A stretch of DNA of 64,000 nt from Pseudomonadota bacterium (lineage in GTDB: Bacteria; Pseudomonadota; Alphaproteobacteria; UBA1280; RI-95): NCBI GenBank assembly GCA_016125375.1, contig WGLU01000008.1:62001-126000 (forward strand). The letters are read 5' to 3'. Below, piece by piece: positions 6,460 to 60,831 of the stretch. Below the pieces are notes generated by a model that ran no database searches, had not been told where the DNA came from, and was given only the letters and a program-made list of their open reading frames with translations. Within the stretch, counting starts at the first letter, position 1. Every line of letters starts with the position of its first letter. A program made the position numbers and the translations under genes.

Positions 6460-6596
6460 ACCTGTTTGTACCATGCCCGTTTGTCCTTGACCACACCCGC
6501 CCGACGCCGCATACTCGGCACCGTTTTTTGACCTCACCTTTTCCCTTGTCTACCCCTTTCTCTTTTATGTCCCATTCAGTAGGAAAGGATCACACC

Positions 6597-6881
6597 ATGC
6601 GTGGTGGCGGAACCTTGGGCCTCATCGGCCTGCTGCTATTCCTGTCCGTATTCGCCGTGTTCTTTGTCACGGCCATCTGGGCGGGCGTGGCCTTCTCCAA
6701 CTGGCTCGTGCCGTTGCTCATCAGCACCAACATGAGCGGTTTTCTGGCTACCCTTCTCGGCGTCATCGGCGGTTTCATCGTCGGCGGCACCGTCGGTCAG
6801 GTCTGCGCGAGCGTCTACGGCTTCATCCTGCAGCTGCTCGGCGTCGGTGTCGGCCTGAGCCTCTTCGGCCGTCGCCGTTAA
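6597..6881 (+). CDS. Small glycine-rich membrane protein between addA and addB, unknown function
   Basis: 94 residues with two long hydrophobic segments (about residues 5-38 and 45-85), ending GRRR, so an inner-membrane protein with a cytoplasmic tail. No known family. Start: ATG at 6597 after AGGAAAGG; the longer in-frame extension is the pyrimidine-rich leader translated by chance. It stands alone, opposite in direction to addA and addB, with its own terminator. Leader layout and GC-rich third positions match other isolated unknown genes in the window. Confidence 0.75.
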   Translation: MRGGGTLGLIGLLLFLSVFAVFFVTAIWAGVAFSNWLVPLLISTNMSGFLATLLGVIGGFIVGGTVGQVCASVYGFILQLLGVGVGLSLFGRRR

Positions 6882-6898
6882 GGCGTTTACGACTAAGT

Positions 6899-6929
6899 CC
6901 CCTGCGTTTGCAGGGGGCTTTTTGTTTTT
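6899..6929 (+). terminator. Intrinsic terminator of the small membrane gene
   Basis: CCCCTGC/GCAGGGG stem with a four-base loop, then a T-rich tail (CTTTTTGTTTTT), 18 bases after the stop at 6881. It abuts the addB stop. Confidence 0.85.
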
Positions 6930-9900
6930 CTAGGACTGCCATTCCTTAAAACGGCAGATACCCGCAAAGTCGCAGTAGGTGCACAGCCCTTCGGGCTTGA
7001 GGGGCGAGTTGCCCGCAGGCATGGCCTGCATGGGGTGTCGGTCATCGGTAAAATGGGCTTTGAGGCGCTTGAGGCCGTCCCGCGCCTCCGCCACCAGTTC
7101 CGGCACTTCGTCCACAGCAATGGAGGGACTGCTGACAAGGCCAAAACCCGTGCCGCTGCCAGCCAACTGCCAATATTCGGCACCGGCGGGTGTTTGCCCG
7201 GCGTCCTGCAACAGCAGCAGCTCCAGCGTCAATTGCGGCTCCAGCCCCTGACGCACATCCCCCTTGGACGGGATGCCACCGGTTTTATAGTCCATGACCA
7301 CCAGTCCTGCAGATGTATGGTCAATCCGGTCGGCACGGGCATACAGTTTGGTGGCTACGTCAAGCCGGCTGTCATGGCTAACCTCAAAATGCGCAGGGGT
7401 CCGCCCTGCGGCGGTATGCTCGGCCTGTACCTCCACAAACTCGGCCGCCATGCGTTTGAAGCGCGGCCACCAGACGGCACGGATGGTCGGGCTGGCCACA
7501 CGGGCGAAGGCAGCCTCCCCGATGGTCAGTAAATGTTCCTCGGCAGCGGCTTTATTGGCGTGGGTGACATCCTGCCCAAAGGGTGGCGGCAGACCGTCCT
7601 GCGGCTCAAAAAAGGCGTGCAGACACAAGTGCAGCAGCGTACCCCGCTCGGCGGCGTCCGGTGCCTCTTCAAAAGCGGGCAACGCCTCCAATCCCAATAT
7701 TTTACCGGCGTAGGTGCGATACGGGCATTGCATCAGGTCGCGCACGGTGGAGGCCGACCATGTGGGCGGCAGGTCGGCAACCTCGGGCATCACCTCGGCA
7801 GGCAGGGTCTTCGGCGGCAACGCGCTGCGGTGCAGACGGTCGATACTGCGGACCCAGTGGTTACCCTTCTCCAGCAGCTTGGCATAGGCCGTTACGTCCG
7901 CCGCCTGCAAACGGGCGTGCAGTTTGGCCCAGTAGCGCGACGGCACGGCCTCGGCACCATCCTCTTTCACCGCACGGGTGAGGTAGACCTCCGGCTGGCA
8001 GGCAAGGTGCAAAAAATCCTGCGCATTGAGGCCGATTTGCCCTTCAGGATCCGGCAGGCCGAGCTGGCTCAACATCTCGCGGTTGAGCCACGGGTCGGGC
8101 TTGGGCGTGCGCGGCCAGCCCCCTTCGTTACAGCCGCCGATGATGACCCTGTCCACCGCCTGCAGGCGAGATTCGGGCGAGCCCCAGATGAACAACCGCG
8201 GGTGTTGTTTATAACGCAGGCGCACCGCCGTGCGGTCGAACACCGTTTCCACCCAGCCGGCATAGTCGGGGGCTTTAAAGGTCAGGCCGTGACTGTCCGT
8301 CCGGCGCCAGTCGTCCAGCAGGGTGGCGAGGGCATCACCATCCGCCTCGCGCAGGAACATATCCCCGCCCGTGCCATCGGCACGCAAGGAAGCCGCTTTG
8401 GCGGCCTGCACATGGGCTTCCACCCAAACGCCCAAAGGGGCATCGCCACGCACGGCGTCCAGCGGCGCGCACACGCGTTTCAGCCCGTCCAGCGCCTCCA
8501 GCGCCAGGTCGGCCTGTGCCTGAATCCACGCATGGTTGGCGTTGGGTCTATCCATCTGTTCCTTGCGGGCTTCGTGCAGACGGCGGGTGAGGCCATCCAG
8601 CCCCGCAGCCGGGCGCGGTCCCCGCAATACGAGCATCTCCAGAGCGCCAGCTCGCTTGCGCCAGTCTTTTTTGGTCATGCCGAAGTGCGCAAAGGGGTGG
8701 CGGGTGAGCATGGCCACATCCAGCGGCCGGAACCGCCCGGCCACAACCTGCGCAAGCAGCGCAAAAAAGCCCCCCGCCGGGCATTGCCGCAACGGCACAC
8801 CGGCAGAGTCGTTCACATGCACACCCCAGCCGCGCAGACGGTCGGCCACGCGCTGCCCCAGCCCACGACTGGGTGTGACAAGGGCGCAGGTTTTGCCCGG
8901 CTCTTCCAGCACTTCGCGCATCAGGTGGGCAATGACATCGGCCTCGGTACGGATGTTGGGTGCCTCGACCAGATGCAGGCCGGATGTTGCGCCCACGGGC
9001 AGCGCCTCCCGCCATGTACCCACCCCTTGCGGCGGGCACAACGCCTGCTGCCACAGGGCGGCACGGGCAGGCGTGATGCCGATAACCTCTACCTGCTCAG
9101 GGGTGATACCAAGACTGTCCATCAGCCCAAAAGTAGCGGCATGGGGATGGCTGGCAGGCAAAGGCTGCCCGGCAAGGCGCAGGGTTTGCCCGTCCACCGA
9201 CGGCAATACCAGCGTACCTTTTTCCCCGGCCAGAATGCTTTGCAGCACCACACGGCCTGCGGGCGTGGTGTCAGCAAAACCGGCCGCGTAGGTGGGCTTA
9301 TCCACCCCCGTGCGGCGGTAAATATCTGCTTGAATATCCAACAGCTTACGCCGCTTGGCACTGGCGTCGGCCTTGCCATTTTCAGCAAGCCACGCGGGAT
9401 AAAACTCGAACACAATGCGCAGGAACAGCAGGTTCTGCTCCCAATGACTGGCCATATCCGGCGGAACCAGCGCGGTGAGTGCCTCGAACGGCACATCATA
9501 CTGCATCAGGCGGTCAAACAGCGCCGCGAGACTTTGGGTGCTATCCAACGCCTGAGATACGTTCATGCGGCTGTCCTTCGCCTGTACCTGACGCATCAGG
9601 TACAGCAAGCGAGCCAGCTCCGGCATGGTGGGGGTGGGATCGATCTCCTGCTCGAACATCAGGGGCTCACTCTCTCCCTCGCCCAAGCGCAACGCCCTCA
9701 GGCGCGGCATCACCAGCCCGTCGCCGGATGTCGTTACAAAAGCCTCCCGCAGGGCTTTGACAGCCCGCTGGGTGGGCAGCCACACGGTAACATCCGCCAG
9801 TGCCAGCGGGTTAGCGGGGTCGGTATGCTGCGTCAGAATATGCGCCGCCAGCACCTGCGCAAACGGCAGCCCCGGCGGCACCGCTAAAATACGGCCACGG

Positions 9901-15152: not shown

Positions 15153-15881
15153 TCAGCCTTTCGGCCGACGGACATCTCGCTTGTTATCCCCCAGCAGGTA
15201 CGGCACCATCTGGCGCAGCACCATGGCCGAGAGCATGTAGCTGTGGCTCGCGTACTCCTTGCCGGTTTCGCTCACCGCCGTCAGCATGCCGACCAGCAGG
15301 CCGTCCTTGTTGACGACAGGACTGCCGGAGTCGCCCATACGGCAGGGCAATGTGAGGGTGACAAACAGACCCTTGAGCTTCTCAAGGCCGATTTCCGTGT
15401 CCTTTTCCACACGTCCGCGGACCATACGGTCCTCGTCGTGCTGGTACATGAACACAAGCTCGCGACCTCCAGGCAGACCTGCCATGTCCGGCGCCGTGAC
15501 AGACTGGCTGTCCGCCAGCGTAATCACAGCCACATCCACCCTGGCGGACCAGACAACATCAGCCGCGGCAACCCACACACCGCCGATGCACACTTCCACG
15601 TGCTCGGGTACGGCAATATGGTCAAGGACATGGGCGTTGGTCACAAAGTGTGTGCCATCCCAAGCCCAAGCCTGTCCGGTGTAATAAATCTGCCCTTTCA
15701 GGTCATAGGCCCTGACGGCAAACGTAACACCGGCAACTTCGGGGGCGGTTTCCACCTCATCCGCAGAAGGCGCGGTGATAATGGGTTCGGGTTGTGGGCG
15801 TGACTTGCTGCGTGCATACAGCAATCCGGCCGTAAAGCCTGCCGCCGAAGCAGCGAGGGCGATGAGGACTTCCATGGGCAT
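15153..15881 (-). CDS. Membrane-anchored S1-type serine protease, copy 1
   Basis: About 242 residues. A hydrophobic N-terminal segment (residues about 4-22) acts as anchor or uncleaved signal. The chymotrypsin-fold triad is seen as TNAHVLD (His), VDVAVI (Asp) and MGDSGSPV (Ser), so it should be an active periplasmic protease. No PDZ domain, unlike DegP. Start: ATG at 15881 with GGAG at seven-base spacing. Preceded by its own promoter and pyrimidine-rich leader. It is a divergent paralogue of the next gene; the targets are unknown. Confidence 0.85.
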   Translation of the reverse strand: MPMEVLIALAASAAGFTAGLLYARSKSRPQPEPIITAPSADEVETAPEVAGVTFAVRAYDLKGQIYYTGQAWAWDGTHFVTNAHVLDHIAVPEHVEVCIGGVWVAAADVVWSARVDVAVITLADSQSVTAPDMAGLPGGRELVFMYQHDEDRMVRGRVEKDTEIGLEKLKGLFVTLTLPCRMGDSGSPVVNKDGLLVGMLTAVSETGKEYASHSYMLSAMVLRQMVPYLLGDNKRDVRRPKG

Positions 15882-15950
15882 AAAGGCGCTCCACGTGTCG
15901 GGAAGAGAAATCAAGAAACGGAAAAGGGATGAGGGTTGTATACACTCTGG

Positions 15951-16050: not shown

Positions 16051-16782
16051 CTAGTCTTCGGCAGCCGGCTGATAGTTGACGAGCGTCACCATGACCTGAC
16101 GCACCAGTTGCGCACCGAGCATATAACTGCCCGGGTCGGCACCTTGGGTTACGACGGCCGCACGGGTCACCAGACCCAGCACGTTGCCGCCAGCGTCAAA
16201 CACGGGACCGCCGGAATCACCCGAACGGCTCGGCAGCGACGTGGTTGCGAACTTCTCGCTTTCGATGGTCACCTCCGAAGCGGAGACGACCGCACCGGTC
16301 AGGACGCGCTTTTCGCTCGTGTTGTAGTAAAACACGGGTGTACCGACGGCAGGCATGCCGCGCATGCCTGCAATGGGTACGCCATGTGGCTTGCTGAACT
16401 CGATCAGGGCGACGTCGTGGCTGGTGGACCAGACGACCCGCGTGGCAGAAATCCACTTACCGTTGACCAGCACCTTGACGGCACTGGCGCTCGGCGTTTC
16501 TTTCACCACGTGGGCATTGGTCACGATGCGGGTTTCGTCCCACGCAACGCCGTGCCCGAGTTTGACCATAGTACTGTCTTTGATGCCGCCCTGTACCTGC
16601 ACCACGAAAGGACGAATGTCCACATTAGGCTTGGGTACCGCGGTATCTTTCTGGAGCGGGATGGTGATGGCCGGGGGAGCCCGGAACACCTCGGGCCTGA
16701 GGTACATAACCGTCGCCGCCCCACCAGAACCTGCAATCATGCCCCAAATAAGCCAGAGCAAACATAGACCGATGGCACGCAT
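16051..16782 (-). CDS. Membrane-anchored S1-type serine protease, copy 2
   Basis: 243 residues. An N-terminal hydrophobic segment (residues 4-27) is followed by a chymotrypsin-fold domain with TNAHVVK (His), SHDVALIEF (Asp) and RSGDSGGPV (Ser). It shares the layout of copy 1, including the VWSTS/VWSAR segment before the Asp and the C-terminal SYMLGAQLVRQ versus SYMLSAMVLRQ, which argues for tandem duplication followed by divergence. Start: ATG at 16782 with GGAGG at six-base spacing and a pyrimidine-rich leader. Substrate unknown. Confidence 0.85.
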   Translation of the reverse strand: MRAIGLCLLWLIWGMIAGSGGAATVMYLRPEVFRAPPAITIPLQKDTAVPKPNVDIRPFVVQVQGGIKDSTMVKLGHGVAWDETRIVTNAHVVKETPSASAVKVLVNGKWISATRVVWSTSHDVALIEFSKPHGVPIAGMRGMPAVGTPVFYYNTSEKRVLTGAVVSASEVTIESEKFATTSLPSRSGDSGGPVFDAGGNVLGLVTRAAVVTQGADPGSYMLGAQLVRQVMVTLVNYQPAAED

Positions 16783-16895
16783 ACGCAGCCTCCATCAGAA
16801 AGGGGGGGAAAGGGTAGAATACGCACAAAAGGAAGTGAAGATCACTCAGGAGTGTCTGCCGTAAGTTATGAGGCGACGGCGAACCGATTACAAGT

Positions 16896-20379: not shown

Positions 20380-20388
20380 CGTCGCTTG

Positions 20389-21243
20389 TTACTGGCCGTT
20401 GGGGCGCATGGCCTCCAGCGCATCCCGAACCTTGGGGTTGAGCTGGCCGAACGGCGTCACTTCGATTTGTGTGCCGGCGTTGCCGTTCCATCCGAGGAAG
20501 ATGAGCAGGTCGGCATCCCAGTCGACAATCTGGCGCACATTGTTGTCGCCGTTGATCTTGACCTGGCTCATGCCGGTGAACTGCTTACTGCCACGCTTGG
20601 CGAGGAGGTTTTCCTGCGCCTGCGGGTCCAGCTTCTCGAAGCCGTAGCAGAACCTGGACGACACGCCGGTGTAGCAGATGCGCTGCGTCTGCCAGACGAA
20701 GATGCGCTGCCAGCCGTTGAAGTCCAGAGCCTTCGAGAAATCCTGAACGGTCAGTGCCGCATCGACCTTGGACGGGTCGATGGTCGCCACCTGCGCCTTC
20801 AGGATCTCCTTACGGGCCTGCAGGTCGGTGATCTGAGCCTTCAGCTGTTCGGCATTGGCCACATCGGCAGCCAGCTGCGCCTTTTCGGTGGCCAGCGCTT
20901 CACGCTCGGCGGCCAACTTGTTGGACTCGGCCTGCAGGCGGATGCGGGCAGCTTCCACGTCGGCAATGCCGGCGGTGGCGAGCTGCTGCTTGAGCAGACC
21001 CAGCGTATCCTGACGCTCGGCGATGGTCTTGTCGAGCTGGCTGATGGCCAGTGCGCGCGCCTCGATGGCGGCCTGCAACTTGGCGGCCTTGTCGCCGCTG
21101 CTGTCGCTGCTCGCGATGCCGATGAAGGCAACCATGAACAGGCTGGCAGCCGCGCCGATGATGATGCCGCGCTGGGTGTCGGTCAGCTTCTTCCACAGGT
21201 CCGCAGCCTTGGCGGCTGCGGCTTTGAATTGGGTGTCACTCAT
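20389..21243 (-). CDS. Membrane-anchored coiled-coil protein, unknown function
   Basis: 284 residues. One membrane segment (about residues 26-44), then a long heptad-like, alanine/glutamate-rich helix (about 52-155) with [16 protein letters not shown], then a globular C-terminal domain of about 120 residues containing two cysteines ([14 protein letters not shown]) and the segment [20 protein letters not shown]. Topology suggests a periplasmic coiled coil. No family recognised. Start: ATG at 21243 with GGGAG nine bases upstream, and a pyrimidine-rich leader. Transcribed alone with its own terminator, between ahcY and rapZ. Confidence 0.82.
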
Positions 21244-21345
21244 GAGGAATATCTCCCACGGTGAGAGGACGAAAAGAGGATAGAGAAAACAAAAGGCAGG
21301 AGGAGATATAAATCACCTCGCCTTATTTAGGGACAATGCTGCCTT

Positions 21346-22303: not shown

Positions 22304-22843
22304 TCAGCTGTTGTCGCGGATGCGGCCGCTCTCGGCCTGCACGGCCAGGATGACGAACACCGCACCAAGGGCGATGACGCCCCAGATGGACGCGCCGACG
22401 AAGGTGGTCGTCAGCCCCAGCAGGAGCGACAGGCCGAAGGTCAGCACACCGGCCGAAACGGACAGGTCGAGCATGGCCATGTACAGCGGACGGTAGCTGT
22501 GGTAGTCGCTGCGCTGGACACCGTGGGTGATGGCGTTGACCGCCGCCCAGACGGCATAACCGCCCAGCACACCGAACACGCCGGCCGGCAGACCGGAGTC
22601 GACGATGCCGACCGTCAGGAAGAACGCGCTGAACAGCCACATCACCATCTGCGCGGTGAAGCGCAGCTGGAGCGTTTCGGTCACGCGCGACAGCACGGTG
22701 GCGACGCCCAGCGGGTTGAGCAGGGCGATGGTCCGGCCAACAGCGCCGGGGATGGCCTTGACGAAGGCGAGCGTCTTGTCCCGGATGATGTTGAGGTCAA
22801 ACGCCTCGTTCTCCGGCTTCTTGGGATTCGGATTCGTGCTCAT
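22304..22843 (-). CDS. Four-segment membrane protein, unknown function
   Basis: 179 residues. A hydrophilic N terminus rich in Asn, Pro and Lys is followed by about four membrane segments (roughly residues 62-78, 80-105, 118-148 and 150-170). No motif or family recognised. Start: ATG at 22843 with AAGGGA at seven-base spacing; the upstream in-frame extension is the pyrimidine-rich leader. Transcribed alone, divergent from the single-pass protein gene at 23023. The third-codon positions are visibly GC-rich compared with rapZ. Confidence 0.78.
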   Translation of the reverse strand: MSTNPNPKKPENEAFDLNIIRDKTLAFVKAIPGAVGRTIALLNPLGVATVLSRVTETLQLRFTAQMVMWLFSAFFLTVGIVDSGLPAGVFGVLGGYAVWAAVNAITHGVQRSDYHSYRPLYMAMLDLSVSAGVLTFGLSLLLGLTTTFVGASIWGVIALGAVFVILAVQAESGRIRDNS

Positions 22844-22938
22844 GAAACATTCCCTTATCGGGTGAGCAGACAAAAGAAAAAGTAGGTGATGGCAATCTGC
22901 CTCCTGTATATATCGTATACACACTTGAAGGCAAGGAC

Positions 22939-22967: not shown

Positions 22968-23022
22968 TCGCCTGCAGTACCTCTCCTTCTTTGCCTTTTC
23001 CTGTACCACGGAGACTTCTCCA

Positions 23023-23436
23023 ATGACCACCTTCTTGGCCCTGCTCTTTGTGGCCGCGTGGATCGCCCTGCTCGGCTGGCTGGCCTACAATGTGATGTCG
23101 CCCTACCGTGTGGTCTGCGCCCACGACGATCACGTGACCTTCCGTCACAAGACGAACGGCAACGTCACCTGCCAGATCATGACCGGCACCGGCACCATCA
23201 CCGATGTGGCCGTCAAGAGCATCCGCCCCGTCGGCCGCCACGGCAGCGTGCACTACCTGAGCCTGAAGCCGGCGTACATCACGCCCGTCAAGGCCGGCAG
23301 CTGCATCATCACCGTTCCCGACGGTGCCACGCTCAAGAGCGCGACCGTGTCCACGCTGTTCGGCGTGCACACGGGTCGGGTGAACTTCCTCTACGGGAAC
23401 GAGCTTCTCGTGGCGGAAATCAATCTGCCCGCCTGA
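23023..23436 (+). CDS. Single-pass membrane protein with small beta-rich domain, unknown function
   Basis: 137 residues: an N-terminal membrane segment (about residues 3-24), then a beta-rich domain of about 110 residues with repeated TGTGTITDV and VKAGSCIITVPDG patterns. Likely anchored in the inner membrane. No family recognised. Start: ATG at 23023, with GGAG 11 bases upstream. Stands alone with promoter, pyrimidine-rich leader and terminator. The coding strand is strongly GC-rich at third positions. Confidence 0.78.
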   Translation: MTTFLALLFVAAWIALLGWLAYNVMSPYRVVCAHDDHVTFRHKTNGNVTCQIMTGTGTITDVAVKSIRPVGRHGSVHYLSLKPAYITPVKAGSCIITVPDGATLKSATVSTLFGVHTGRVNFLYGNELLVAEINLPA

Positions 23437-23444
23437 ACAAACGT

Positions 23445-30380: not shown

Positions 30381-30390
30381 GGGTCGATTG

Positions 30391-31521
30391 TCAGGCGTGC
30401 TGCATTTCCATCTGCGGGCTGCTGACGAACAGCAGGGCGCGACGGCGGGCACGCTCGGCACCGGTGTCATCCTGCGACAGGACCGCGAAGGCCTGCAGGA
30501 TGGCGATGATGAGGCTGCGGTAGCTGGCGCGGGTTTCGGCGTCCGCCAGGGTCTTCTCGAACTTGCGGAAGGCCTTGGGGTCGAAATCGCTGACCTGCGT
30601 GTTGTCGCCGCCAACCACCAGGGTGGCGAAATCGAACAGCAGGCTGGCACGGCCACGTTCGCCGCCGACCTCCAGATGGATGACCGACTTGTTGCTCAGC
30701 GTCAGCGGCACCCACACGTAGTGGAGCTCGCGATTGGCCTCGTCCACGCCGGCGTACATCATCAGCGGCACGCGCGGGATACGGAACAGCGCTTCGACGT
30801 CGCTGGCGCGGATGTTCTCCGCCCCGACCGACTCGACACGGGCCAGCCAGCGGCTGACCAGCGAGGGCTTGAGGTCGTAACCGACCATCGTCAGCGCCTT
30901 GTCGATGAGCGACAGGAACTGCGGCAGGTCGGCCATCAGCTCGTCCGAGACCTTGCAGCTGCGCAGCGCGTTGCCGCGCATCTGCTCCATGGTCGCAGCC
31001 AGCACTTCGGCGTGCTGCGCGAAGATGGACAGGATCTGGGCCTGCGCCGCCTTGGCACTGGTCAGCGCCGCCACCGGGAAACCGGCGACCGCACGTTCCA
31101 GAATCAGGCGCATGCGCACGAACGGCTCGTCGAGGTAGGCCTCGGCCAGCGCCTCGAGGTTGAGGCTGACCTTGGCTTCGTCCGCCGAGTGCAGGCAGAA
31201 GCCGTGGCCGCGGAGCATGTAGCCTTCGTCCTCGAACACCATCAGGGACATGAAGCGCATGCCCATGACGTGGAGTTCGATGATGAGGCCGGTCACTTCG
31301 GTGCCCGCCTCGTTCGGCAGGACCTTGAGCTGCAGCTGCGTCACCTGCACCACGGGCGAGGTGAGCATCACCTGCTCGAAGGCCTGAATGTCCGACAGCG
31401 ACGCGAAGACCGGCAGGTCATTTGCGAACGCGCCCGGCTCCAGGCCGAATACCTGCTCCACCTGCTGCAGAAACACGGGCAGATGGCGCTTGAGGCCGCT
31501 GGAAAACGGCAAGTTTTGCAT
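30391..31521 (-). CDS. Unknown protein, member A of a three-gene tandem family
   Basis: 376 residues, predicted soluble and without signal peptide. Layout: helical N terminus (about 1-58), beta-rich segment (60-112), helical segment (115-215), second beta-rich segment (240-290), helical end (295-350) with ASYRSLIIAILQAFAV then a basic ERARRR. The same order recurs in the next two genes, and the two halves of each protein look alike, suggesting an internal duplication. No known family recognised. Start: ATG at 31521 with GGGAG upstream and pyrimidine-rich leader. Strong GC bias at third positions. Confidence 0.85.
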   Translation of the reverse strand: MQNLPFSSGLKRHLPVFLQQVEQVFGLEPGAFANDLPVFASLSDIQAFEQVMLTSPVVQVTQLQLKVLPNEAGTEVTGLIIELHVMGMRFMSLMVFEDEGYMLRGHGFCLHSADEAKVSLNLEALAEAYLDEPFVRMRLILERAVAGFPVAALTSAKAAQAQILSIFAQHAEVLAATMEQMRGNALRSCKVSDELMADLPQFLSLIDKALTMVGYDLKPSLVSRWLARVESVGAENIRASDVEALFRIPRVPLMMYAGVDEANRELHYVWVPLTLSNKSVIHLEVGGERGRASLLFDFATLVVGGDNTQVSDFDPKAFRKFEKTLADAETRASYRSLIIAILQAFAVLSQDDTGAERARRRALLFVSSPQMEMQHA

Positions 31522-31603
31522 CGGTTGTCTCCCTTTCGGAAAACCTTGCGGTAAGGGTAAAATGTAGGAAACGGGAAAAGAAGAACATAAGGTTCCATTG
31601 GGT

Positions 31604-31632
31604 GGTTTAGCACAGTTACCCTAGGGGTGCAA
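31604..31632 (-). promoter_or_regulatory. Candidate promoter of family gene A
   Basis: Minus-strand TTGCAC, 17-base spacer, TAAACC. The palindrome TTGTATACAA lies directly upstream at 31635-31646 and may be an operator. Confidence 0.45.
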
Positions 31633-31646
31633 GGGTTGTATACAAC

Positions 31647-31678
31647 AAAAAAGAAAGGAGCCTTTGCAGGCTCCTTTC
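31647..31678 (-). terminator. Intrinsic terminator of family gene B
   Basis: GAAAGGAGCCT/AGGCTCCTTTC stem (31653-31663 with 31668-31678) then six T on minus; 18 bases past the stop at 31696. Confidence 0.93.
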
Positions 31679-31695
31679 AGGGGTCGATTGACGTG

Positions 31696-32748
31696 CTAGA
31701 GCACTTCCATGTGGTTGCCCACAGTCAGGAAGAGCACCAGTGCGCGGCGGATGGCCTCGCACTTGTCCTTGCGCTTGGTCACCACCTCGATGGCGTTGAC
31801 CAGGCGGCAGGCCCGTTCGTACACGAACGCCCGCTCCTCCACATTCAGGGTTGCCGCCAGTTCGCCTGCCAACTCGGGCAGGAAAACAGCGTCTTCCTTG
31901 GTACTGAAGGTGGCGAAGCGCAGGTCGATGTCCAGCCGCTCGTCGGAGACGATAACGTCAAAGCTGACCGTCGCCGTGACCGGGATACGGAACACGATGC
32001 CGACAATCCGCTGCTGGCGGGACGACGTCCGGTAGATCGGCTGGAAGAACGCGCTCGTACCCTTGAGCACATCATCCAGATTCTTGCCTTTGGGCGTGCT
32101 GCTCAGCAGCCCCACATCGTGGCGCCATCGGCCGGCATAGCTGAGGTCGGTCTTGCCGTGGTAGCGGTCGAGCATATACAGCCCGGCCTCCATGGCGCCG
32201 ACCATCTGCGGCGAGAAGTCGTAGTCGTAGAAGTTGTCGAACTGCAGCGCGCGGATGATGCCTTTCCTGACCTTTTCCAGCTTGGCATCGCCCCCGGTGG
32301 GGAAGTTGCCCAGCGCCTGATACAGGAAAAGCTTCTGCTTGAAGCTGGCAGACGGCAGGTTGTTGACCGCCTCGTTCACCACACACTCGGCAGCGCCGAG
32401 CGATGACAGAACAAAGCCGGGACCGGCCAGAACCGTCTGGTTGCCAAAGAAGCGGATGTCCATCAGCGGCTCACCGTCGAGGATGAACGTGAAAGACGCG
32501 CCGGAGGCCAGATGCTTGTTCGGTCCGTTGCTGAACAGCGGTTTGATGCGATAGCTGAGCTTGCCGGGCATGCTGGTCTTGGCCAGAACGTTGACAACGT
32601 CCTGAAAATCTTCCAAGTCCTCCATGTCACGGGCAACATCCACCACATCTGCGGCAGGCACGTCAAAGACGGCGGCCAACAGATACAGGAACGGCTCCAT
32701 GTCGCGAATGAATGCCGTCGAAAGCGGCGTGTTGTCTTGTGTCGACAT
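31696..32748 (-). CDS. Unknown protein, member B of a three-gene tandem family
   Basis: 350 residues, predicted soluble. N-terminal helices (FLYLLAAVFDVPAADVVDVA) correspond to FLQQVEQVFGLEPGAFANDL of member A and FLTALTKELGGDEVALAAAI of member C. A beta segment (SFTFILDGEPLMDIRFFG) and helices follow, then a second beta/helical half ending EERAFVYERACRLVNAIEVV and KCEAIRRALVLFL. Identity to A and C is low by eye but the pattern and lengths agree. Start: ATG at 32748 with CTGGAGG upstream. Function unknown. Confidence 0.85.
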   Translation of the reverse strand: MSTQDNTPLSTAFIRDMEPFLYLLAAVFDVPAADVVDVARDMEDLEDFQDVVNVLAKTSMPGKLSYRIKPLFSNGPNKHLASGASFTFILDGEPLMDIRFFGNQTVLAGPGFVLSSLGAAECVVNEAVNNLPSASFKQKLFLYQALGNFPTGGDAKLEKVRKGIIRALQFDNFYDYDFSPQMVGAMEAGLYMLDRYHGKTDLSYAGRWRHDVGLLSSTPKGKNLDDVLKGTSAFFQPIYRTSSRQQRIVGIVFRIPVTATVSFDVIVSDERLDIDLRFATFSTKEDAVFLPELAGELAATLNVEERAFVYERACRLVNAIEVVTKRKDKCEAIRRALVLFLTVGNHMEVL

Positions 32749-32835
32749 AAGGGCGTTACCTCCAGAGAAAGAGGAACCATAAAAGAGATCGGGTGGGTGA
32801 AAAGTAGAAAGATACGTCCAGATAGACAGGGATTA

Positions 32836-32864
32836 ACTGTATGGTATTTATGCCGCCCCTTCAA
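32836..32864 (-). promoter_or_regulatory. Promoter of family gene B
   Basis: Minus-strand TTGAAG, 17-base spacer, TACAGT; the same -10 and spacing as the promoters of family gene C and S1 protease copy 1. Confidence 0.6.
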
Positions 32865-32884
32865 GCACATCGGCACGCGCATGC

Positions 32885-32916
32885 AAAAAAAAGAGGCACC
32901 GCATAAGCGGTGCCTC
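32885..32916 (-). terminator. Intrinsic terminator of family gene C
   Basis: GAGGCACCGC/GCGGTGCCTC stem (32893-32902 with 32907-32916) then eight T on minus; 14 bases past the stop at 32930. Confidence 0.93.
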
Positions 32917-32929
32917 CTCGTTTGTGGGG

Positions 32930-34102
32930 TTAGTCGTTGTCGTCATCCGTCGGCTTGAGCACGTCGAAGCCCGGGATGCTGAGCGTCTGGGCGATCTGCC
33001 GACGCGCCGCTTCGGCCTTGGCGTCACCGTTGGTGAACGCACCGAAGCCCTGCACCATGTGCAGGATGACGTCGATCATCGTCGCGCGGCGTTCGGCCGA
33101 CAAGCCTTCACGCTCGCCATGCAGCGCCATCAGCGCCGCACCGTTGACGAACGCGGCACTGCCGTGAACGTGGACCGAGAACTCCGGCGCCACCAGGCTG
33201 GCGTCGCCATCGAGCCCGAGGCCGATGAGGATGCTGCTGATCGCACGGCCGGCATCGTCGGTGAGCGACAGCTCCAGACCCAGACCGGCGACTTCGCCTT
33301 CCTTGGCGCGGATGGCCAGACGCAGACCGAACTTGCGCAGCGGCTCGATGATGGCCGCAACGTCCTTGCCGGTCAGGAACTTGCCCGCCGGCAGCGTCCG
33401 CAGGCGTGCCTGCAGGGTCGCTTCCAGGCCGGTGCCCTGCTTCAGGCCCATGGCGTCGTCGACGATGGAGAACAGCGCTTCGATGTTGTCCATGACCTTG
33501 CCGCTGATGGGATAGCCCATCGGGTCGACATAGCCGAGGTCGTTCAGCGCCTCGAGGCGCATCTTGTCCGCAGCCGAGCCCTTGGCAAAAGCCGGGGAGC
33601 GCAGCAGGTGGAACATGAACGCACGGACCGTTTCGGACAGGTTCTTGAGCTGGCCCATGGCACCGCTGTGGTACTCGGACTGGCTGTCGTCCTTGTCGTT
33701 CAGGCTGGTTCCCGGCGCGACCAGGTGCAGATCGTCGGTGGTGATGACCACGCGCGAGAAGATCTGGCGACCGATGCCCGGATCGGCGACGATGACGTCG
33801 ACGATGAGCAGCGTAACCTGATTCTTGCCCTGCAGCTGCATCACCTGAGGCGTCAGCCCCAGCGCGATGACCGGGATGGCCTTGCCGTCGTCGGTCTGGA
33901 TGTGGCGGCGAAAGATCGGCGCGGTGATGAGGGCGTTGTACACCGGCACCAGGTCGCGGTCGTCTTCCAGCTTGGCGATGGCCGCCGCAAGGGCGACTTC
34001 GTCACCGCCCAGCTCTTTGGTCAAGGCCGTCAGAAACGGCACCAGACGCGCCTTGAGGGCGGCCGCAATCGGGGTACGGGGGGTATCGTTGTCGTTGGAC
34101 AT
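32930..34102 (-). CDS. Unknown protein, member C of a three-gene tandem family
   Basis: 390 residues, predicted soluble. N-terminal helices, a beta segment (NQVTLLIVDVIVADPG), helices with LSETVRAFMFHLLRSPAF, a second beta segment (LGLELSLTDDAGRAISSILIG) and C-terminal helices with AERRATMIDVILHMVQGFGAF and AEAARRQIAQTL. The two helical segments resemble each other (SETVRAFMFHLL versus AERRATMIDVIL), supporting an internal repeat. Start: ATG at 34102 with GGAGG at nine-base spacing; the long in-frame extension is the pyrimidine-rich leader and tRNA region. Function unknown. Confidence 0.85.
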   Translation of the reverse strand: MSNDNDTPRTPIAAALKARLVPFLTALTKELGGDEVALAAAIAKLEDDRDLVPVYNALITAPIFRRHIQTDDGKAIPVIALGLTPQVMQLQGKNQVTLLIVDVIVADPGIGRQIFSRVVITTDDLHLVAPGTSLNDKDDSQSEYHSGAMGQLKNLSETVRAFMFHLLRSPAFAKGSAADKMRLEALNDLGYVDPMGYPISGKVMDNIEALFSIVDDAMGLKQGTGLEATLQARLRTLPAGKFLTGKDVAAIIEPLRKFGLRLAIRAKEGEVAGLGLELSLTDDAGRAISSILIGLGLDGDASLVAPEFSVHVHGSAAFVNGAALMALHGEREGLSAERRATMIDVILHMVQGFGAFTNGDAKAEAARRQIAQTLSIPGFDVLKPTDDDND

Positions 34103-34188
34103 AGGGTATGTCCTCCATGCAGAATGGAAAGAGAAAAAAGGGGGAAAAGAGAAAAGGAAAGATGCACCAAACAATAGGTGATACGCAC

Positions 34189-35337: not shown

Positions 35338-35366
35338 AAAAAGCGGGCACCCTGTGCCCGCTTTTT
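35338..35366. terminator. Bidirectional terminator between carbonic anhydrase and ABC exporter genes
   Basis: AAAAAGCGGGCAC/GTGCCCGCTTTTT 13-bp stem with three-base loop; A and T runs at both ends serve both strands. It touches the stop of the exporter gene. Confidence 0.93.
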
Positions 35367-37146: not shown

Positions 37147-37149
37147 CGC

Positions 37150-39000: not shown

Positions 39001-39003
39001 GAA

Positions 39004-42511: not shown

Positions 42512-42520
42512 CTGTATCGC

Positions 42521-43063
42521 TTACAGGGTGGGCTCACCCTTTTTGTCGGCTTTGATTTGCTGGCCGCTGCGCAGCACTTTGCCGTTCTTCCAGTCGTCCC
42601 AGTCGCCCGGGTTGACCGTCAGCCAGCGCACCGAGGTGGCGCCGTAGGTCATCCGCACTTCGACGAAGCGCTCGGAATAGCCGTCGTAGGTTTCCACCCA
42701 CACGTAGACCTTGTCCACGAAGGCGGTCTGGCCGGCGGGAATCAGATCCTGCGGTTTGTTGGTCGCCTGCTTGAGGCAGCCGGTGATGTCCTGGGTGGCG
42801 CCGTCCTTCTTCAGGGCGTCAATGTCCAGACCGGTGACGTCGCCGGAGTAGCGGCTCTTGGTGCGGCTCACGCCGTTGTCGATGTAGCTGATGTCCACGT
42901 ACCAGGCGCTGCTGTAGCGCAGCTTGGCCTTGGCGGCCACACCGACAGGTACGTATTCACAGACGGTCCGGTTCGGGCCGACGCCGTCGAGGTACATCTC
43001 CTGACAGGCCGAAAGCAGGAGCATGGCCGGCAAGAGCGCGAGAATGGCAAGGCGTTTGAACAT
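42521..43063 (-). CDS. Small lipoprotein, unknown function
   Basis: 180 residues. Signal peptide with lipobox LLLSACQE (cysteine near residue 20), so lipid-anchored; the residue after Cys is Gln, not Asp, which would favour the outer membrane by the Lol rule known in enterics. The mature part is about 160 residues with several aromatic beta-like stretches (KVYVWVETYDGYSERFVEVRMTYG). No known family. Start: ATG at 43063 with AAGGGA at eight-base spacing. Own promoter, leader and terminator. Confidence 0.82.
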   Translation of the reverse strand: MFKRLAILALLPAMLLLSACQEMYLDGVGPNRTVCEYVPVGVAAKAKLRYSSAWYVDISYIDNGVSRTKSRYSGDVTGLDIDALKKDGATQDITGCLKQATNKPQDLIPAGQTAFVDKVYVWVETYDGYSERFVEVRMTYGATSVRWLTVNPGDWDDWKNGKVLRSGQQIKADKKGEPTL

Positions 43064-43116
43064 GATGAGAATCCCTTCCAGGGGCAAAACGGGAAATAAA
43101 AGGTGGAGTCCCGGCA

Positions 43117-44217: not shown

Positions 44218-44297
44218 CGTTTTTCCACTCCCACATTATAACCATCAAGCCATCTTGGCTCCCGTTTCCCATCTTCCTCTCTCCAATGGAGCGCACT

Positions 44298-44630
44298 ATG
44301 CAAACCATCCGTAAAGTCTTGGGCTTCGTGCTCAAGTCCCTGTGGCGTCTGCTGTTGGTGGTCGGCATCATTGCCGCCATCGCCTACGTCGGCTACACCC
44401 TCTGGGACAACCGTCCGCGTGACTATGCGGAGCCCGAAATCAAGGGCAATGCCTTCGTCACCTGCCCGGCCAATGCGACCGATCTCGAACTGCGCGCCGG
44501 CTACAAGGTGCCCGTGGTCGAGAACCATCAGATCGTCGTCCAGTACCGTCTGCTCTACCGCGACGGGAATGGCGAGAACTGCATTCGCATCGTCGACCAG
44601 GCGACCTTCGAGAAGAAGGTCGGACACTAA
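44298..44630 (+). CDS. Small single-pass membrane protein, unknown function
   Basis: 110 residues. One membrane segment (about residues 14-36), then about 70 soluble residues with two cysteines (FVTCPAN, ENCIRIV) that could form a disulfide outside the cytoplasm. No family recognised. Start: ATG at 44298 with GGAG at six-base spacing; an in-frame ATG at 44286 overlaps that site. Preceded by a leader of mostly C and T and followed by its own terminator. Confidence 0.75.
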   Translation: MQTIRKVLGFVLKSLWRLLLVVGIIAAIAYVGYTLWDNRPRDYAEPEIKGNAFVTCPANATDLELRAGYKVPVVENHQIVVQYRLLYRDGNGENCIRIVDQATFEKKVGH

Positions 44631-44642
44631 CCTCCCAAGCGT

Positions 44643-45493: not shown

Positions 45494-45523
45494 AAAAAAG
45501 CCCCCGCTGGTGCGGGGGCTTTT
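45494..45523. terminator. Bidirectional terminator between yaaA and the kinase-like gene
   Basis: AGCCCCCGC/GCGGGGGCT stem with TGGT loop, A run on the left and T run on the right; lies between two convergent stops. Confidence 0.92.
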
Positions 45524-45529
45524 CGTTTA

Positions 45530-46153
45530 TCAGCCGACGTAAGGGTCGGTCACAACCAGCCGGCCATCGGCCGGACGGTACATGATGTTGGCTGTCTGGG
45601 TATCCAGACCAAGAGATTTGGCATCCCTCAGGGCACGCACCTGTGCCACAACCTGCCGGATTTCCCTGATGGTCGCACTGTCAGGCTTTTTGTAGCCAAA
45701 CAGCATCTGGCTGAGGGACCACTGCGCGTTGAACAAATCTTCGCTACGGGTCGACTTGATGCTGACCAGCGGCTCCATCAATGTCAGATGGAAGCCCTTT
45801 GCCACATCGATCGTCCGGTGCAGGTAGATGCGCGGGTAATGCGGATTATCCGCATGTTCCATGGCCAGCCGCACGAAATGCGGGTAGCCCCTGTCGGTAC
45901 GGGTGAGTTTGCACACCACGCCGTCAACCAGATACACATCACTGAAGGCACCGCTGTCCAGATAGATACCGCCCTGAGCCTCAAGCGCCTGCCGAAGGGC
46001 AAGGAACGACGGCTCGTGCAGCGTCAAATGGACCAGTTGGTTGTATATATCCCGCGCTTTGGCGGGCAGTTCGGGTGACTGGAGCAAACTTTCCCCGCGC
46101 AGGCGCGCAAGGGCGTCCTGCTCCTGCAGGTGAAAGTACAGCGCTTCGCGCAT
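45530..46153 (-). CDS. Minimal protein-kinase-like protein
   Basis: 207 residues, about half the size of a normal aminoglycoside-phosphotransferase or protein kinase. Seen: a glycine-loop-like DSGAFSDVYLV near residue 70 with VVCKLTR providing a lysine, a hinge region (LTLMEPLVSI), and a catalytic-loop-like GLDTQTANIMYRP (Asp and Asn) followed by LVVTDPYVG, an equivalent of the DFG/metal-binding Asp, right at the C terminus. So key residues are kept but the C lobe is missing beyond the DFG equivalent. Start: ATG at 46153 with GGAG at six-base spacing. Substrate unknown. Confidence 0.72.
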   Translation of the reverse strand: MREALYFHLQEQDALARLRGESLLQSPELPAKARDIYNQLVHLTLHEPSFLALRQALEAQGGIYLDSGAFSDVYLVDGVVCKLTRTDRGYPHFVRLAMEHADNPHYPRIYLHRTIDVAKGFHLTLMEPLVSIKSTRSEDLFNAQWSLSQMLFGYKKPDSATIREIRQVVAQVRALRDAKSLGLDTQTANIMYRPADGRLVVTDPYVG

Positions 46154-46210
46154 GATGCACTCCATGAAAGGCAAACGGGAAGAGAAGATAACCATGTTAT
46201 CCGTTAGCAG

Positions 46211-50356: not shown

Positions 50357-51124
50357 ATGCTACGCGTTCTGTCCTGGAACCTCTACCACTACAACAAAAA
50401 GCTCGGCACGGCAGTCAAAGCCGTCAAGCGTCTCAAACCCGACGTGGTGTGCCTCCAAGAGGTGCATCCGGATGCCTTCCCGATGCTCGAAGCACTGGAC
50501 GGCTACACCCTCCACAAAGCGCGGGATTTTCACGAGGACCATAACGGCATCCTCACTGAGCAGTCGTATCTGGTCATTCTCTCGCGCCTGCCCGTAAGCC
50601 GCCACCATGTGGTCAACCACGGCGAGGCGCCAAGCGACTCCATCGTCGGCTGGCTGACCAAGTGGGTCGAGTGCGTGGAAAGCCAGTCCGTCACCGTCCA
50701 GACGGACGAAGGACCGGTCACAGTGGTCAACTGCCACCTTTCCTGTGCTGTCAGCATGAAGCACCGTCAGGTCGAAATGGCCGAGGTCATGGCCGGGCAC
50801 GTGGGCGATTCGCAAAACCCTGTCGTTCTCTGCGGCGACTTCAATACGCTGGGCCGTCCGTGGACCAACCTGATTGCCGGCTGGGTGTTCGGCATCCGCT
50901 GGGCGGAACTGTTCGTCAATGAACAGGACCTCTTCGATGCCTTCTGCGCCCGCCACGGATTTGTACAGCTGTTCCAGCATGTGCTTACCCATCCGCTGAC
51001 GTTCGGCAATCTGGACCACATCCTGATCACGGCCAAGAACCTCCGCTGCGACTACCGTCGCATCGGCAGGCAACGCTACGGCAGCGACCACCGCATGCTG
51101 GTGGCCGACCTGACGCCGTTTTAA
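50357..51124 (+). CDS. Endonuclease/exonuclease/phosphatase (EEP) family protein
   Basis: 255 residues, a complete EEP domain. Catalytic motifs: LSWNLYH (metal Asn), CLQEV (metal Glu), VNCHLS, CGDFNT (Asp/Asn), GNLDHILI and SDHRMLVADL (general-base Asp-His). The fold includes nucleases, sphingomyelinase-like lipases and inositol phosphatases, so the substrate is open. No signal peptide, so cytoplasmic. Start: ATG at 50357 with AGGAGG at seven-base spacing. Lies alone between thrC and the oxidase cluster. Confidence 0.9.
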   Translation: MLRVLSWNLYHYNKKLGTAVKAVKRLKPDVVCLQEVHPDAFPMLEALDGYTLHKARDFHEDHNGILTEQSYLVILSRLPVSRHHVVNHGEAPSDSIVGWLTKWVECVESQSVTVQTDEGPVTVVNCHLSCAVSMKHRQVEMAEVMAGHVGDSQNPVVLCGDFNTLGRPWTNLIAGWVFGIRWAELFVNEQDLFDAFCARHGFVQLFQHVLTHPLTFGNLDHILITAKNLRCDYRRIGRQRYGSDHRMLVADLTPF

Positions 51125-51128
51125 CGAG

Positions 51129-57183: not shown

Positions 57184-57201
57184 CCTAAAAGCGCCGCCCG
57201 G

Positions 57202-58191: not shown

Positions 58192-58229
58192 TGGGTGAGT
58201 TTTTACCCCGCCACAAGAACCGGAACACC

Positions 58230-59660: not shown

Positions 59661-59676
59661 AAATGCACGCCAAAGG

Positions 59677-59705
59677 TTGACGCAGCGCGGCGGGTCGCCT
59701 ATATC
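59677..59705 (+). promoter_or_regulatory. Promoter of the secreted small protein gene
   Basis: TTGACG, 17-base spacer, TATATC, about 34 bases before the start at 59739. Confidence 0.7.
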
Positions 59706-59738
59706 TCCCTCTAAGTTTGTTTGTGAAGGGATGTTCTG

Positions 59739-60158
59739 ATGTTGAAAGTTCTGTTGACCGCCTGCCTGACCCTGTCTGCAATTGCAGCACAGGCTGAAGA
59801 TGGCACCACCGTGGTTACCACCACGCCGCGCACGGTTACCTACAGCACCACCACCAGCACCTACACATCTCTGCCCAATGGTGGTTTCCACAGCCGCAAG
59901 ACTTTCGAAGAGCGTGCCAACAGCAGCACCCAGACCGTCACCACGTCGTCCAAGAGCACCTTTACCCGTGGCCGCGGCCGCCTGAACTGTAACGCCAACG
60001 GTTGTTTCCGCCGCACCGGCGCCTATGTTGTTGCCCCGTCCAACAGCTCCTACCGCGACACCTTTTCCGGTACCCTGCGCCCGAACAACCTGACCAGCAA
60101 CCCGGGCGTAAGCACTGTTCGCCTGCAACCGGTTACCTTGCAGGTCTTCAACCGCTAA
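59739..60158 (+). CDS. Secreted Thr/Ser-rich small protein, unknown function
   Basis: 139 residues. Signal peptide of about 19 residues ending AAQAE. The mature part is very rich in Thr and Ser (about residues 20-75), then basic (TRGRGRLNC) with two cysteines in LNCNANGCFRR, and a C-terminal beta-like tail. Probably periplasmic or exported; possible disulfide. No family recognised. Start: ATG at 59739 with AAGGGA upstream. Confidence 0.8.
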   Translation: MLKVLLTACLTLSAIAAQAEDGTTVVTTTPRTVTYSTTTSTYTSLPNGGFHSRKTFEERANSSTQTVTTSSKSTFTRGRGRLNCNANGCFRRTGAYVVAPSNSSYRDTFSGTLRPNNLTSNPGVSTVRLQPVTLQVFNR

Positions 60159-60177
60159 CGATTTAAGATTTCTCCAC

Positions 60178-60210
60178 AAAAAAGGGACGCTTGCGCGTCC
60201 CTTTCCTTTT
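60178..60210. terminator. Bidirectional terminator between convergent small genes
   Basis: AAAGGGACGC/GCGTCCCTTT stem with TTGC loop, A run on the left and T-rich tail on the right. Confidence 0.9.
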
Positions 60211-60223
60211 TCGCTTGATGGGG

Positions 60224-60745
60224 TCAGTCCGCGTCTTCGAGGCCAGCAGCAAAGGCATCCAGCGCGGCACGTTCCTGCTTATAGGCCACCAGCCATTCGC
60301 GGTAGTACTGCAAGTACACGACCGCCAGCCGTTCTGCGGCAGCCATCTGGTCCTTTCGGCCACCATTGATGGCGCGGTAAAGCGCTTCCACCACCATTTT
60401 CAGGCGGTCACGGGCAGCGGTGGCGATTTCGGTCTGCTGTTCGACCAGCCGGTACTGGCGAGCGAAACCCTTGGTCAGGTCAGCCGTCAGCTCGTCCGCA
60501 TCCATCAGCGCATTGGTCTGCGCATCCAGCACGGAGATTTTCTTGGCTTCGCCGCCTTTGGCGGTCAGCGCCCAATCCAGCAGTTCCTTGGCGGTTTCCA
60601 GCGCCAGACGGTCCAGCACGGTGGTATCGTCGGCATCCAGCGCATCAATGCAGGCAATGCGCAGACGCTCTTCCTGCTCGTTGGTCAGGATTTGCGGCTT
60701 GCTCACAAAAGCGAGCACCTGCCGCAGCGTGTTGAGGGTGGTCAT
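60224..60745 (-). CDS. Helical soluble protein, unknown function
   Basis: 173 residues, almost entirely helical, charged and alanine-rich, with no signal peptide. A segment near residues 105-150 (AARDRLKMVVEALYRAI, AAAERLAVVYLQYYREW) has a pattern similar to the C-terminal helices of the three tandem family proteins, but this may only reflect helical composition. Start: ATG at 60745, with a GGGA-type site upstream; preceded by a pyrimidine-rich leader and promoter that lies in the end of rsmE. Confidence 0.78.
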   Translation of the reverse strand: MTTLNTLRQVLAFVSKPQILTNEQEERLRIACIDALDADDTTVLDRLALETAKELLDWALTAKGGEAKKISVLDAQTNALMDADELTADLTKGFARQYRLVEQQTEIATAARDRLKMVVEALYRAINGGRKDQMAAAERLAVVYLQYYREWLVAYKQERAALDAFAAGLEDAD

Positions 60746-60802
60746 GGAGAATATCCCTGAAGTTCGGGAGAGGAAAAAGGTCCAAAAAAGCTTTACGGCG
60801 CC

Positions 60803-60831
60803 AGTGTATACAAACCTTGGTGGCCCGGCAA
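60803..60831 (-). promoter_or_regulatory. Promoter of the helical soluble protein gene
   Basis: Minus-strand TTGCCG, 17-base spacer, TACACT, adjacent to the rsmE stop at 60837; one base from the TACAGT -10 of other unknown genes. Confidence 0.6.

What the first reader, a model, noticed from the sequence alone, without database searches (positions are those of the whole stretch)
6480..60831. A dispersed set of self-contained single-gene units of unknown function
About fourteen genes (6597-6881, 15153-15881, 16051-16782, 20389-21243, 22304-22843, 23023-23436, 30391-31521, 31696-32748, 32930-34102, 42521-43063, 44298-44630, 45530-46153, 50357-51124, 60224-60745) share one layout: a leader rich in C and T, a GGAG-type ribosome site and, for most, a recognisable promoter upstream and a hairpin terminator 10-20 bases after the stop. 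Their products are mostly unrecognised: small membrane proteins, lipoproteins, tandem proteases, a mini-kinase, coiled coils. By eye their third-codon positions are more GC-rich than those of neighbouring housekeeping genes. The shared layout across unrelated proteins suggests a common regulon, a common origin, or cassette-like acquisition.
Basis: partly seen in the sequence, partly recalled or inferred. Interest (0 to 1): 0.72.

Follow-up and report, generated by a model that had tools for sequence, protein, structure and literature searches.

The report
Marked self-contained gene units, one lineage
In one poorly known group of alphaproteobacteria, about a tenth of the genes, mostly of unknown function, are built as stand-alone units that carry the same three sequence marks (a C/T-rich leader, a short motif after the stop codon and unusual codon use), which suggests a separate and so far undescribed gene-expression programme.

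Summary
The class is genome-wide: 79 of 746 sampled genes in this genome, 94 of 932 in UBA6503 and 15 of 168 in OFTM141, two relatives from another family of the same order. Members share a pyrimidine-rich unstructured leader at -55 to -18, a strong Shine-Dalgarno site, an intrinsic terminator (about 80% against about 20%) and shifted codon use (GC3 0.81 against 0.65; 0.62 against 0.47; no rise in OFTM141, 41% GC). Class membership is conserved between orthologues (odds ratio 67). The leader pattern is near background in 286 other alphaproteobacterial genomes. Ribosomal genes lack the marks and have opposite codon use. No alternative-sigma promoter, integron array or phage content was seen. 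Best reading: a lineage-specific post-transcriptional gene class or second expression programme, trans-factor unknown (confidence about 0.5). Main rival: a shared mobile gene pool.

The parts
6597..6881 (+). class gene, 94-aa membrane protein, GC3 0.84
6537..6566 (+). pyrimidine-rich leader of 6597 (93% Y)
6887..6892 (+). 3' motif-like TTACGA before the terminator
15153..15881 (-). class gene, Trypsin_2 protease with N-terminal anchor, GC3 0.71
15900..15935 (-). pyrimidine-rich leader of 15153 (89% Y)
16051..16782 (-). class gene, Trypsin_2 protease (34% identical to 15153), GC3 0.72; no 3' motif
16797..16821 (-). pyrimidine-rich leader of 16051 (92% Y)
20389..21243 (-). class gene, coiled-coil protein with a membrane segment, GC3 0.86
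21263..21306 (-). pyrimidine-rich leader of 20389 (91% Y)
20382..20388 (-). 3' motif CAAGCGA
22304..22843 (-). class gene, membrane protein, no Pfam, GC3 0.91; no 3' motif
22860..22886 (-). pyrimidine-rich leader of 22304 (85% Y)
23023..23436 (+). class gene, 137-aa membrane-anchored protein, GC3 0.91
22978..23002 (+). pyrimidine-rich leader of 23023 (92% Y)
23438..23444 (+). 3' motif CAAACGT
30391..31521 (-). class gene, member of the 30391/31696/32930 tandem family, GC3 0.90
31553..31585 (-). pyrimidine-rich leader of 30391 (88% Y)
30384..30390 (-). 3' motif CAATCGA
31696..32748 (-). class gene of the same tandem family, GC3 0.82; class orthologue in UBA6503
32764..32788 (-). pyrimidine-rich leader of 31696 (88% Y)
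31684..31690 (-). 3' motif CAATCGA
32930..34102 (-). class gene of the same tandem family, GC3 0.87; class orthologues in UBA6503 and OFTM141; confident two-repeat predicted fold without PDB match
34126..34162 (-). pyrimidine leader of 32930 (37 of 37 Y)
32918..32924 (-). 3' motif CAAACGA
42521..43063 (-). class gene, putative lipoprotein, GC3 0.87
43080..43103 (-). pyrimidine-rich leader of 42521 (88% Y)
42517..42523 (-). 3' motif TAAGCGA overlapping the stop codon
44298..44630 (+). class gene, small membrane protein, GC3 0.83
44259..44284 (+). pyrimidine-rich leader of 44298 (92% Y)
44636..44642 (+). 3' motif CAAGCGT
45530..46153 (-). class gene, 207-aa kinase-like protein, GC3 0.72; class orthologue in UBA6503, where the family forms a tandem array of four
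46166..46191 (-). pyrimidine-rich leader of 45530 (88% Y)
45523..45529 (-). 3' motif TAAACGA
50357..51124 (+). class gene, endonuclease/exonuclease/phosphatase-type protein, GC3 0.80; has a non-class paralogue in the same genome
50314..50340 (+). pyrimidine-rich leader of 50357 (93% Y)
51122..51127 (+). 3' motif TAACGA overlapping the stop codon
60224..60745 (-). class gene, unknown 173-aa protein, GC3 0.74
60766..60790 (-). pyrimidine-rich leader of 60224 (88% Y)
60211..60217 (-). 3' motif CAAGCGA

Best explanation
The genes belong to a lineage-specific expression class of about 10% of the genome. Each unit, occasionally a two- or three-gene operon, is transcribed on its own from a sigma-70-type promoter into an mRNA with a 50-70 nt unstructured pyrimidine-rich leader, a strong SD and, between stop codon and terminator, a short AACG-centred motif. 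The most likely mechanism is post-transcriptional. A pyrimidine-binding factor (ribosomal protein S1, or an unidentified RNA-binding protein or small RNA) acts on the leader to set initiation, and a second interaction at the 3' motif affects the mRNA's fate. The whole group is thereby switched together as a second expression programme, separate from the growth programme that ribosomal genes follow. Synonymous GC-ending codon choice on these transcripts evolved under that programme. Shown: the marks, their co-occurrence, their conservation across families and their restriction to this lineage. Inferred: that they act in RNA, that one trans-factor reads them, and the condition in which they are used.
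For: Leader, SD, terminator and codon use co-occur in three genomes of 57, 48 and 41% GC, except that GC3 is raised only in the first two. The 3' AACG motif was found separately and is enriched in all three genomes. Among genes below the leader threshold, high GC3 still predicts the 3' motif (12/26 against 37/282, p = 1e-4; 12/27 against 37/450, p = 2e-6). Class membership is conserved between reciprocal best hits: 8/14 against 4/204, odds ratio 67, p = 1e-8, at 23-50% protein identity. Genes of the same tandem family beside the same kind of ABC transporter carry the leaders in all three genomes. The leader is less folded than in other genes (-4.3 against -8.6 kcal/mol in G000; -1.7 against -5.8 in G005). 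Paralogue pairs inside one genome fall one in and one out of the class, with GC3 moving accordingly (for example M3 peptidase 0.77/0.91, Aas 0.62/0.85, stomatin 0.65/0.88, NfeD 0.61/0.92), so the mark follows the programme and not the protein family. Ribosomal genes lack the leader and have GC3 near 0.59. Codon preferences such as AAG and CAG cannot reflect isoacceptor choice, because only tRNA-Lys(UUU) and tRNA-Gln(UUG) were found among the 36 tRNA genes.
Against: No expression data. No trans-factor was identified: there is no RRM protein, and the cold-shock and S1-domain repertoires are ordinary. No gene-specific pairing between leader and 3' motif. GC3 is not raised in OFTM141. The 4-mer signature of class genes departs from the host genome in a way that a shared external source would also give. 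About a fifth of class genes lack a detected terminator and about 40-60% lack the exact AACG word.
Confidence: 0.5

Rival explanations
1. The units are a shared mobile or exchangeable gene pool: self-contained cassettes (promoter, leader, gene, motif, terminator) that move between lineage members, for example by transduction, conjugation or transformation, and keep a common sequence signature.
For: After removal of amino-acid and codon effects, the 4-mer signature of class genes correlates r = 0.64 between G000 and G005, above 0.49 for the other genes, and only 0.6 with their own genome (split-half 0.88-0.96). Few homologues in the sister genome (16/79 against 230/667). Class genes sit next to each other more often than chance (23 against 8 pairs; 27 against 9.4). 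In UBA6503 whole units are tandemly repeated with their own leader and terminator.
Against: Codon use and GC3 follow each host genome (0.81, 0.62, 0.31) and do not match a common donor. Orthologues remain at a conserved locus after divergence to 21-27% identity. The leader k-mers differ by lineage (CCGTTT against ATCTTC). PHROGs matches are scattered, with no phage structural module. No cassette array was seen: the units are dispersed. Non-class genes without a hit in the G005 sample have low GC3 (0.63).
Confidence: 0.25
2. These are simply strongly translated genes: a pyrimidine tract acting as an S1 translational enhancer, a strong SD and favoured codons, selected gene by gene, with no shared regulator.
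For: Strong SD, ATG starts, unstructured leader and good terminators. The pyrimidine tract lies directly upstream of the SD.
Against: Ribosomal protein, EF-G and rpoB/C genes lack the leader and differ in codon use, in the opposite direction. In UBA6503 and OFTM141 the class uses fewer of the C-ending codons that the other genes favour (TAC, AAC, CAC). This does not explain the 3' motif or the restriction to one lineage.
Confidence: 0.12
3. The class is a set of long-lived mRNAs: leaders nearly free of purines, few AU-rich cleavage sites and strong 3' hairpins protect against RNase E and exonucleases, for use in a dormant or non-growing state.
For: RNWUU density is 4.7 against 13.3 per kb in G000 and 14.4 against 21.8 in G005. 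TAA/TTA tetramers are depleted beyond codon effects in both. Terminators at about 80%.
Against: RNWUU is not avoided beyond what codon use explains (O/E 0.94 and 1.04), and the difference is reversed in OFTM141 (30.5 against 27.6).
Confidence: 0.08
4. No real class: short orphan genes at mutational equilibrium with incidental leaders.
For: Class genes are shorter (median 207 against 271 aa) and mostly lack Pfam domains.
Against: Intergenic GC is 0.50, far below the class GC3. Short non-class genes have GC3 0.62 and those without a hit in the G005 sample 0.63. Marks co-occur and are conserved.
Confidence: 0.03

Closest known systems
Pyrimidine- or U-rich translational enhancers upstream of the SD, bound by ribosomal protein S1 (recalled knowledge)
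   Same: An unstructured pyrimidine-rich tract just upstream of the SD.
   Different: Here it marks about a tenth of the genes as a conserved set, with a 3' motif, codon shift and autonomous units; ribosomal genes do not use it. S1 binding was not tested.
TAACTGA direct repeats of marine Beggiatoaceae (MacGregor 2015, PMC4679880)
   Same: A short motif near gene ends that marks a functionally mixed gene set and is read as a possible post-transcriptional network with S1, Csp or Csr as candidate binders.
   Different: Those are tandem heptamers just upstream of starts, spread over distant phyla; here a pyrimidine tract upstream and a single AACG-type motif downstream, in one order, with distinct codon use.
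Core versus accessory GC3 classes of Rhizobium leguminosarum (PMC1557990)
   Same: Two GC3 classes in an alphaproteobacterial genome that separate accessory from conserved genes.
   Different: There accessory genes have low GC3 and form islands; here GC3 is high in two genomes, units are largely dispersed and carry leader and 3' marks.
Integron gene cassettes
   Same: Compact single-gene units, mostly of unknown function, with a sequence mark after the stop codon.
   Different: Each unit has its own promoter-like region and terminator, the units are dispersed, and the hairpin is a terminator with a T-run; an integrase was not searched for.
Eukaryotic 5' TOP mRNAs (analogy only, recalled)
   Same: A pyrimidine leader marks a translational class.
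   Different: TOP mRNAs encode the translation machinery; here that machinery is excluded. No homology is implied.

Membership tests
S1-dependent pyrimidine enhancer leaders | Unstructured pyrimidine-rich tract upstream of the SD | tested here: met
   Positional profile in three genomes and folding energies in two
S1-dependent pyrimidine enhancer leaders | S1 binds the tract and raises translation | not testable with these tools
   Needs binding and reporter assays
Alternative sigma factor regulon | Shared promoter distinct from the housekeeping promoter | tested here: not met
   De novo promoter in G000 class genes is sigma-70-like; the strict consensus also occurs upstream of other genes. 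The G005 model was dominated by upstream terminators, so the test there is weak
Highly expressed genes under translational selection | Same codon preference as ribosomal protein genes | tested here: not met
   Opposite at most four-fold codons; GC3s 0.59 against 0.81
Integron cassette array | Clustered promoterless cassettes | tested here: not met
   Dispersed units with sigma-70-like promoters and terminators
Integron cassette array | attC site and IntI integrase | not tested
   No systematic attC or integrase search; by eye the hairpins end in T-runs without a GTTRRRY core
Horizontally acquired island genes | Composition foreign to the host | tested here: inconclusive
   4-mer signature differs but codon use tracks the host genome
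Horizontally acquired island genes | Recent arrival without orthologues at the same locus | tested here: inconclusive
   Conserved tandem family beside the ABC transporter but few homologues overall
TAACTGA repeat network | Tandem TAACTGA heptamers upstream of starts | tested here: not met
   The class has a single AACG-type motif downstream of the stop and no such repeat in the leaders shown

The most novel reading that the evidence does not exclude
A dedicated second gene-expression programme in a bacterium: a trans-acting system reads a 5' pyrimidine leader and a 3' AACG motif on about 200 mRNAs and has driven a distinct synonymous codon usage in them, including duplicate copies of housekeeping enzymes reserved for that programme.
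Probability: 0.3. Interest if true: 0.9.

Novelty: new variant of a known kind. Interest (0 to 1): 0.7.

Why it matters
If confirmed, one could predict from sequence alone which unknown genes of an uncultured lineage are expressed together, and codon use in one bacterial genome would split by expression programme in a direction opposite to the ribosomal genes and without isoacceptor tRNAs to explain it. The paralogue pairs, one in and one out of the class in the same genome, give ready-made matched comparisons for asking what shapes synonymous codon choice.

Tried and rejected
Ribosome-type codon optimisation: rejected. Alternative sigma promoter: not seen in G000; the same model on G005 locked onto upstream terminators and is uninformative there. 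RNase E motif avoidance: no effect beyond codon use. Gene-specific base pairing between leader and 3' motif: own pairs no better than swapped pairs (p = 0.76 and 0.63), although leader CCGTTT and 3' AAACG look complementary in G000. RRM protein as reader: absent. Expansion of cold-shock or S1-domain proteins: none. ATP/ADP translocase as a sign of intracellular life: no match, but the control also rang nowhere, so uninformative. Phage origin by PHROGs: scattered matches only. Protein search for 50357 in named genomes found nothing. Tree of class against non-class Aas copies: loci could not be fetched. Literature: nothing on UBA6503 and no description of this combination in the held library. 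A pyrimidine stretch near window 878-917 (-) is inside an upstream coding sequence before an ornithine-aminotransferase-like gene, not a class leader.
Full report
WHERE THIS IS. The window is positions 62001-126000 of contig C5 of a 1.98-Mb, nine-contig, 97.7% complete genome. Its order holds five other genomes among those searched. Two of them, from one other family, were identified by a named-genome scan as Proteobacteria bacterium UBA6503 (G005) and Alphaproteobacteria bacterium OFTM141 (G003). I sampled 803 kb of the own genome, the 994-kb contig of G005 and 186 kb of G003, and called genes with a codon-model script. The gene calls are my own and unreviewed.

All 14 listed ORFs exist as stated. 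A mechanical score, the best 24-nt pyrimidine fraction in -60..-8, picks exactly these 14 of 60 window genes at >=0.8. GC3 is 0.82 against 0.69 (p = 2e-6). Four of the 14 (15153, 16051, 45530, 60224) have ordinary GC3.

IT IS GENOME-WIDE. The class comprises 79 of 746 genes in G000, 94 of 932 in G005 and 15 of 168 in G003. GC3 of class against other isolated genes is 0.81/0.65 (p = 3e-29), 0.62/0.47 (p = 2e-39) and 0.31/0.34. In G000, 48 of 62 genes with GC3 >0.80 have the leader, and several of the other 14 are operon followers or just under the threshold. Neither being monocistronic with an SD (0.647), nor short (0.624), nor lacking a hit in the G005 sample (0.628) raises GC3 without the leader.

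ANATOMY. Class genes have a free upstream region (97-100% with >=60 nt) and usually a free downstream region (82-94% with >=40 nt). The leader is pyrimidine-rich from about -55 to -18, where other genes are A-rich, and it is less folded. Terminators follow about 80% of class genes and about 20% of the others. Promoters in G000 look like ordinary sigma-70 sites about 73 nt upstream of the ATG; strict matches are a minority (20/69).

A NEW MARK. Between stop codon and terminator the class carries a short motif. In G005 it is TAACGA: TAACG occurs in 72% of class genes with terminators against 8% of other genes with terminators, and TAACGA was found 48 times within 40 nt of class stops (94 class genes) against 23 times near the stops of the 740 genes with leader score below 0.7. 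In G000 it is (C/T)AANCG(A/T), with AAnCG(A/T) or AACG(A/T) in 64% against 14% (p = 5e-11). With one fixed word, AACG within 30 nt of the stop, p is 8e-9, 7e-19 and 3e-3 in the three genomes. Ten of the 14 window genes have a clear copy; 6597 and 15153 have only related sequences, and 16051 and 22304 have none. The motif also goes with high GC3 among genes below the leader threshold, so the marks define one class and not a chain of coincidences. The motif was found by looking at these same genes, so the G005 and G000 figures are not fully independent tests; the G003 figure uses the same fixed word but rests on only 15 class genes.

CONSERVATION AND SPREAD. Of reciprocal best hits between G000 and G005, 8 of 14 class genes have a class orthologue against 4 of 204 others (odds ratio 67, p = 1e-8), and they are more diverged (median 33% against 47% identity). 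The tandem family at 30391-34102 has counterparts beside an ABC transporter of the same family in G005 and G003, with leaders. A pattern of 14 pyrimidines, GGAG and ATG matches 54, 132 and 86 times in G000, G005 and G003, but at most 21 times in the other 286 alphaproteobacterial genomes and once in G001 of the same order. A stricter pattern over 199 genomes drawn from the phylum shows no comparable genome.

WHAT THE PROTEINS ARE. Mostly unknown, short and often membrane-anchored. Known domains are peripheral: several peptidases, a potassium-channel/TrkA protein, Aas, stomatin and NfeD, EAL, queuosine salvage and others. Several class genes are second copies of a non-class gene in the same genome, with GC3 shifted upward. 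In UBA6503 several class families form tandem arrays, mostly with a separate leader and terminator for each gene. The 32930 family folds with confidence (pLDDT 86.7) into a two-repeat structure with no PDB or viral match at E <= 0.001. 45530 is a small kinase-like protein: glycine-rich loop, D-x4-N and TDP motifs, and a moderate-confidence model (pLDDT 74.8) matching protein kinases at E about 1e-4.

CODON USE. The shift is toward GC-ending codons across amino acids, including AAG and CAG, although the only Lys and Gln tRNAs found among 36 tRNA genes are UUU and UUG. It is opposite to the ribosomal genes. It exceeds intergenic GC (0.50), so mutation alone is an unlikely cause. The shift is alike in G000 and G005 (r = 0.71) but absent in G003. 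In the codon-independent 4-mer signature, class genes of G000 resemble those of G005 (0.64) as much as their own genome (0.61); common selection or a common source would both do this.

INTERPRETATION. I favour a lineage-specific post-transcriptional class or second expression programme (0.5). A mobile gene pool is the main rival (0.25). No reader protein was found among the families I tried, and nothing here shows expression. Calling it a regulon therefore remains an inference from conserved marks.

Noticed in passing
window 35365-40845 (-): Three ABC transporter genes in tandem near the class trio. The copies at 37150 and 39004 are 62-65% identical to a UBA6503 transporter; the copy at 35365 is only 27% identical and clearly divergent.
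   Followed up: partly
window 30391-34102 (-): A tandem family with a confidently predicted duplicated alpha/beta fold that has no match in PDB or BFVD at E <= 0.001.
   Followed up: partly
window 45530-46153 (-) and L191:12108-15096: A minimal kinase-like family (about 200 aa, no Pfam match), in four tandem copies in UBA6503, each with its own class leader.
   Followed up: partly
G000, G005 and G003 coding sequences: GATC is strongly under-represented in non-class genes of all three genomes (O/E 0.34-0.39 after codon correction), and less so in class genes (0.53-0.57).
   Followed up: no
G005 non-class genes: Unusual preference for A-ending codons (CCA, TCA, CTA, CAA, AAA) with almost no CGG or TCC.
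   Followed up: no
G000 contigs C2 and C3, ends: Both contigs end in the same first bases of an EF-Tu-type gene, consistent with two tuf copies breaking the assembly.
   Followed up: no
G000 upstream regions, e.g. window 42521, 30391, 15153, 60224: The palindrome-like word TTGTATACAA or GTATAC recurs upstream of several class promoters.
   Followed up: no
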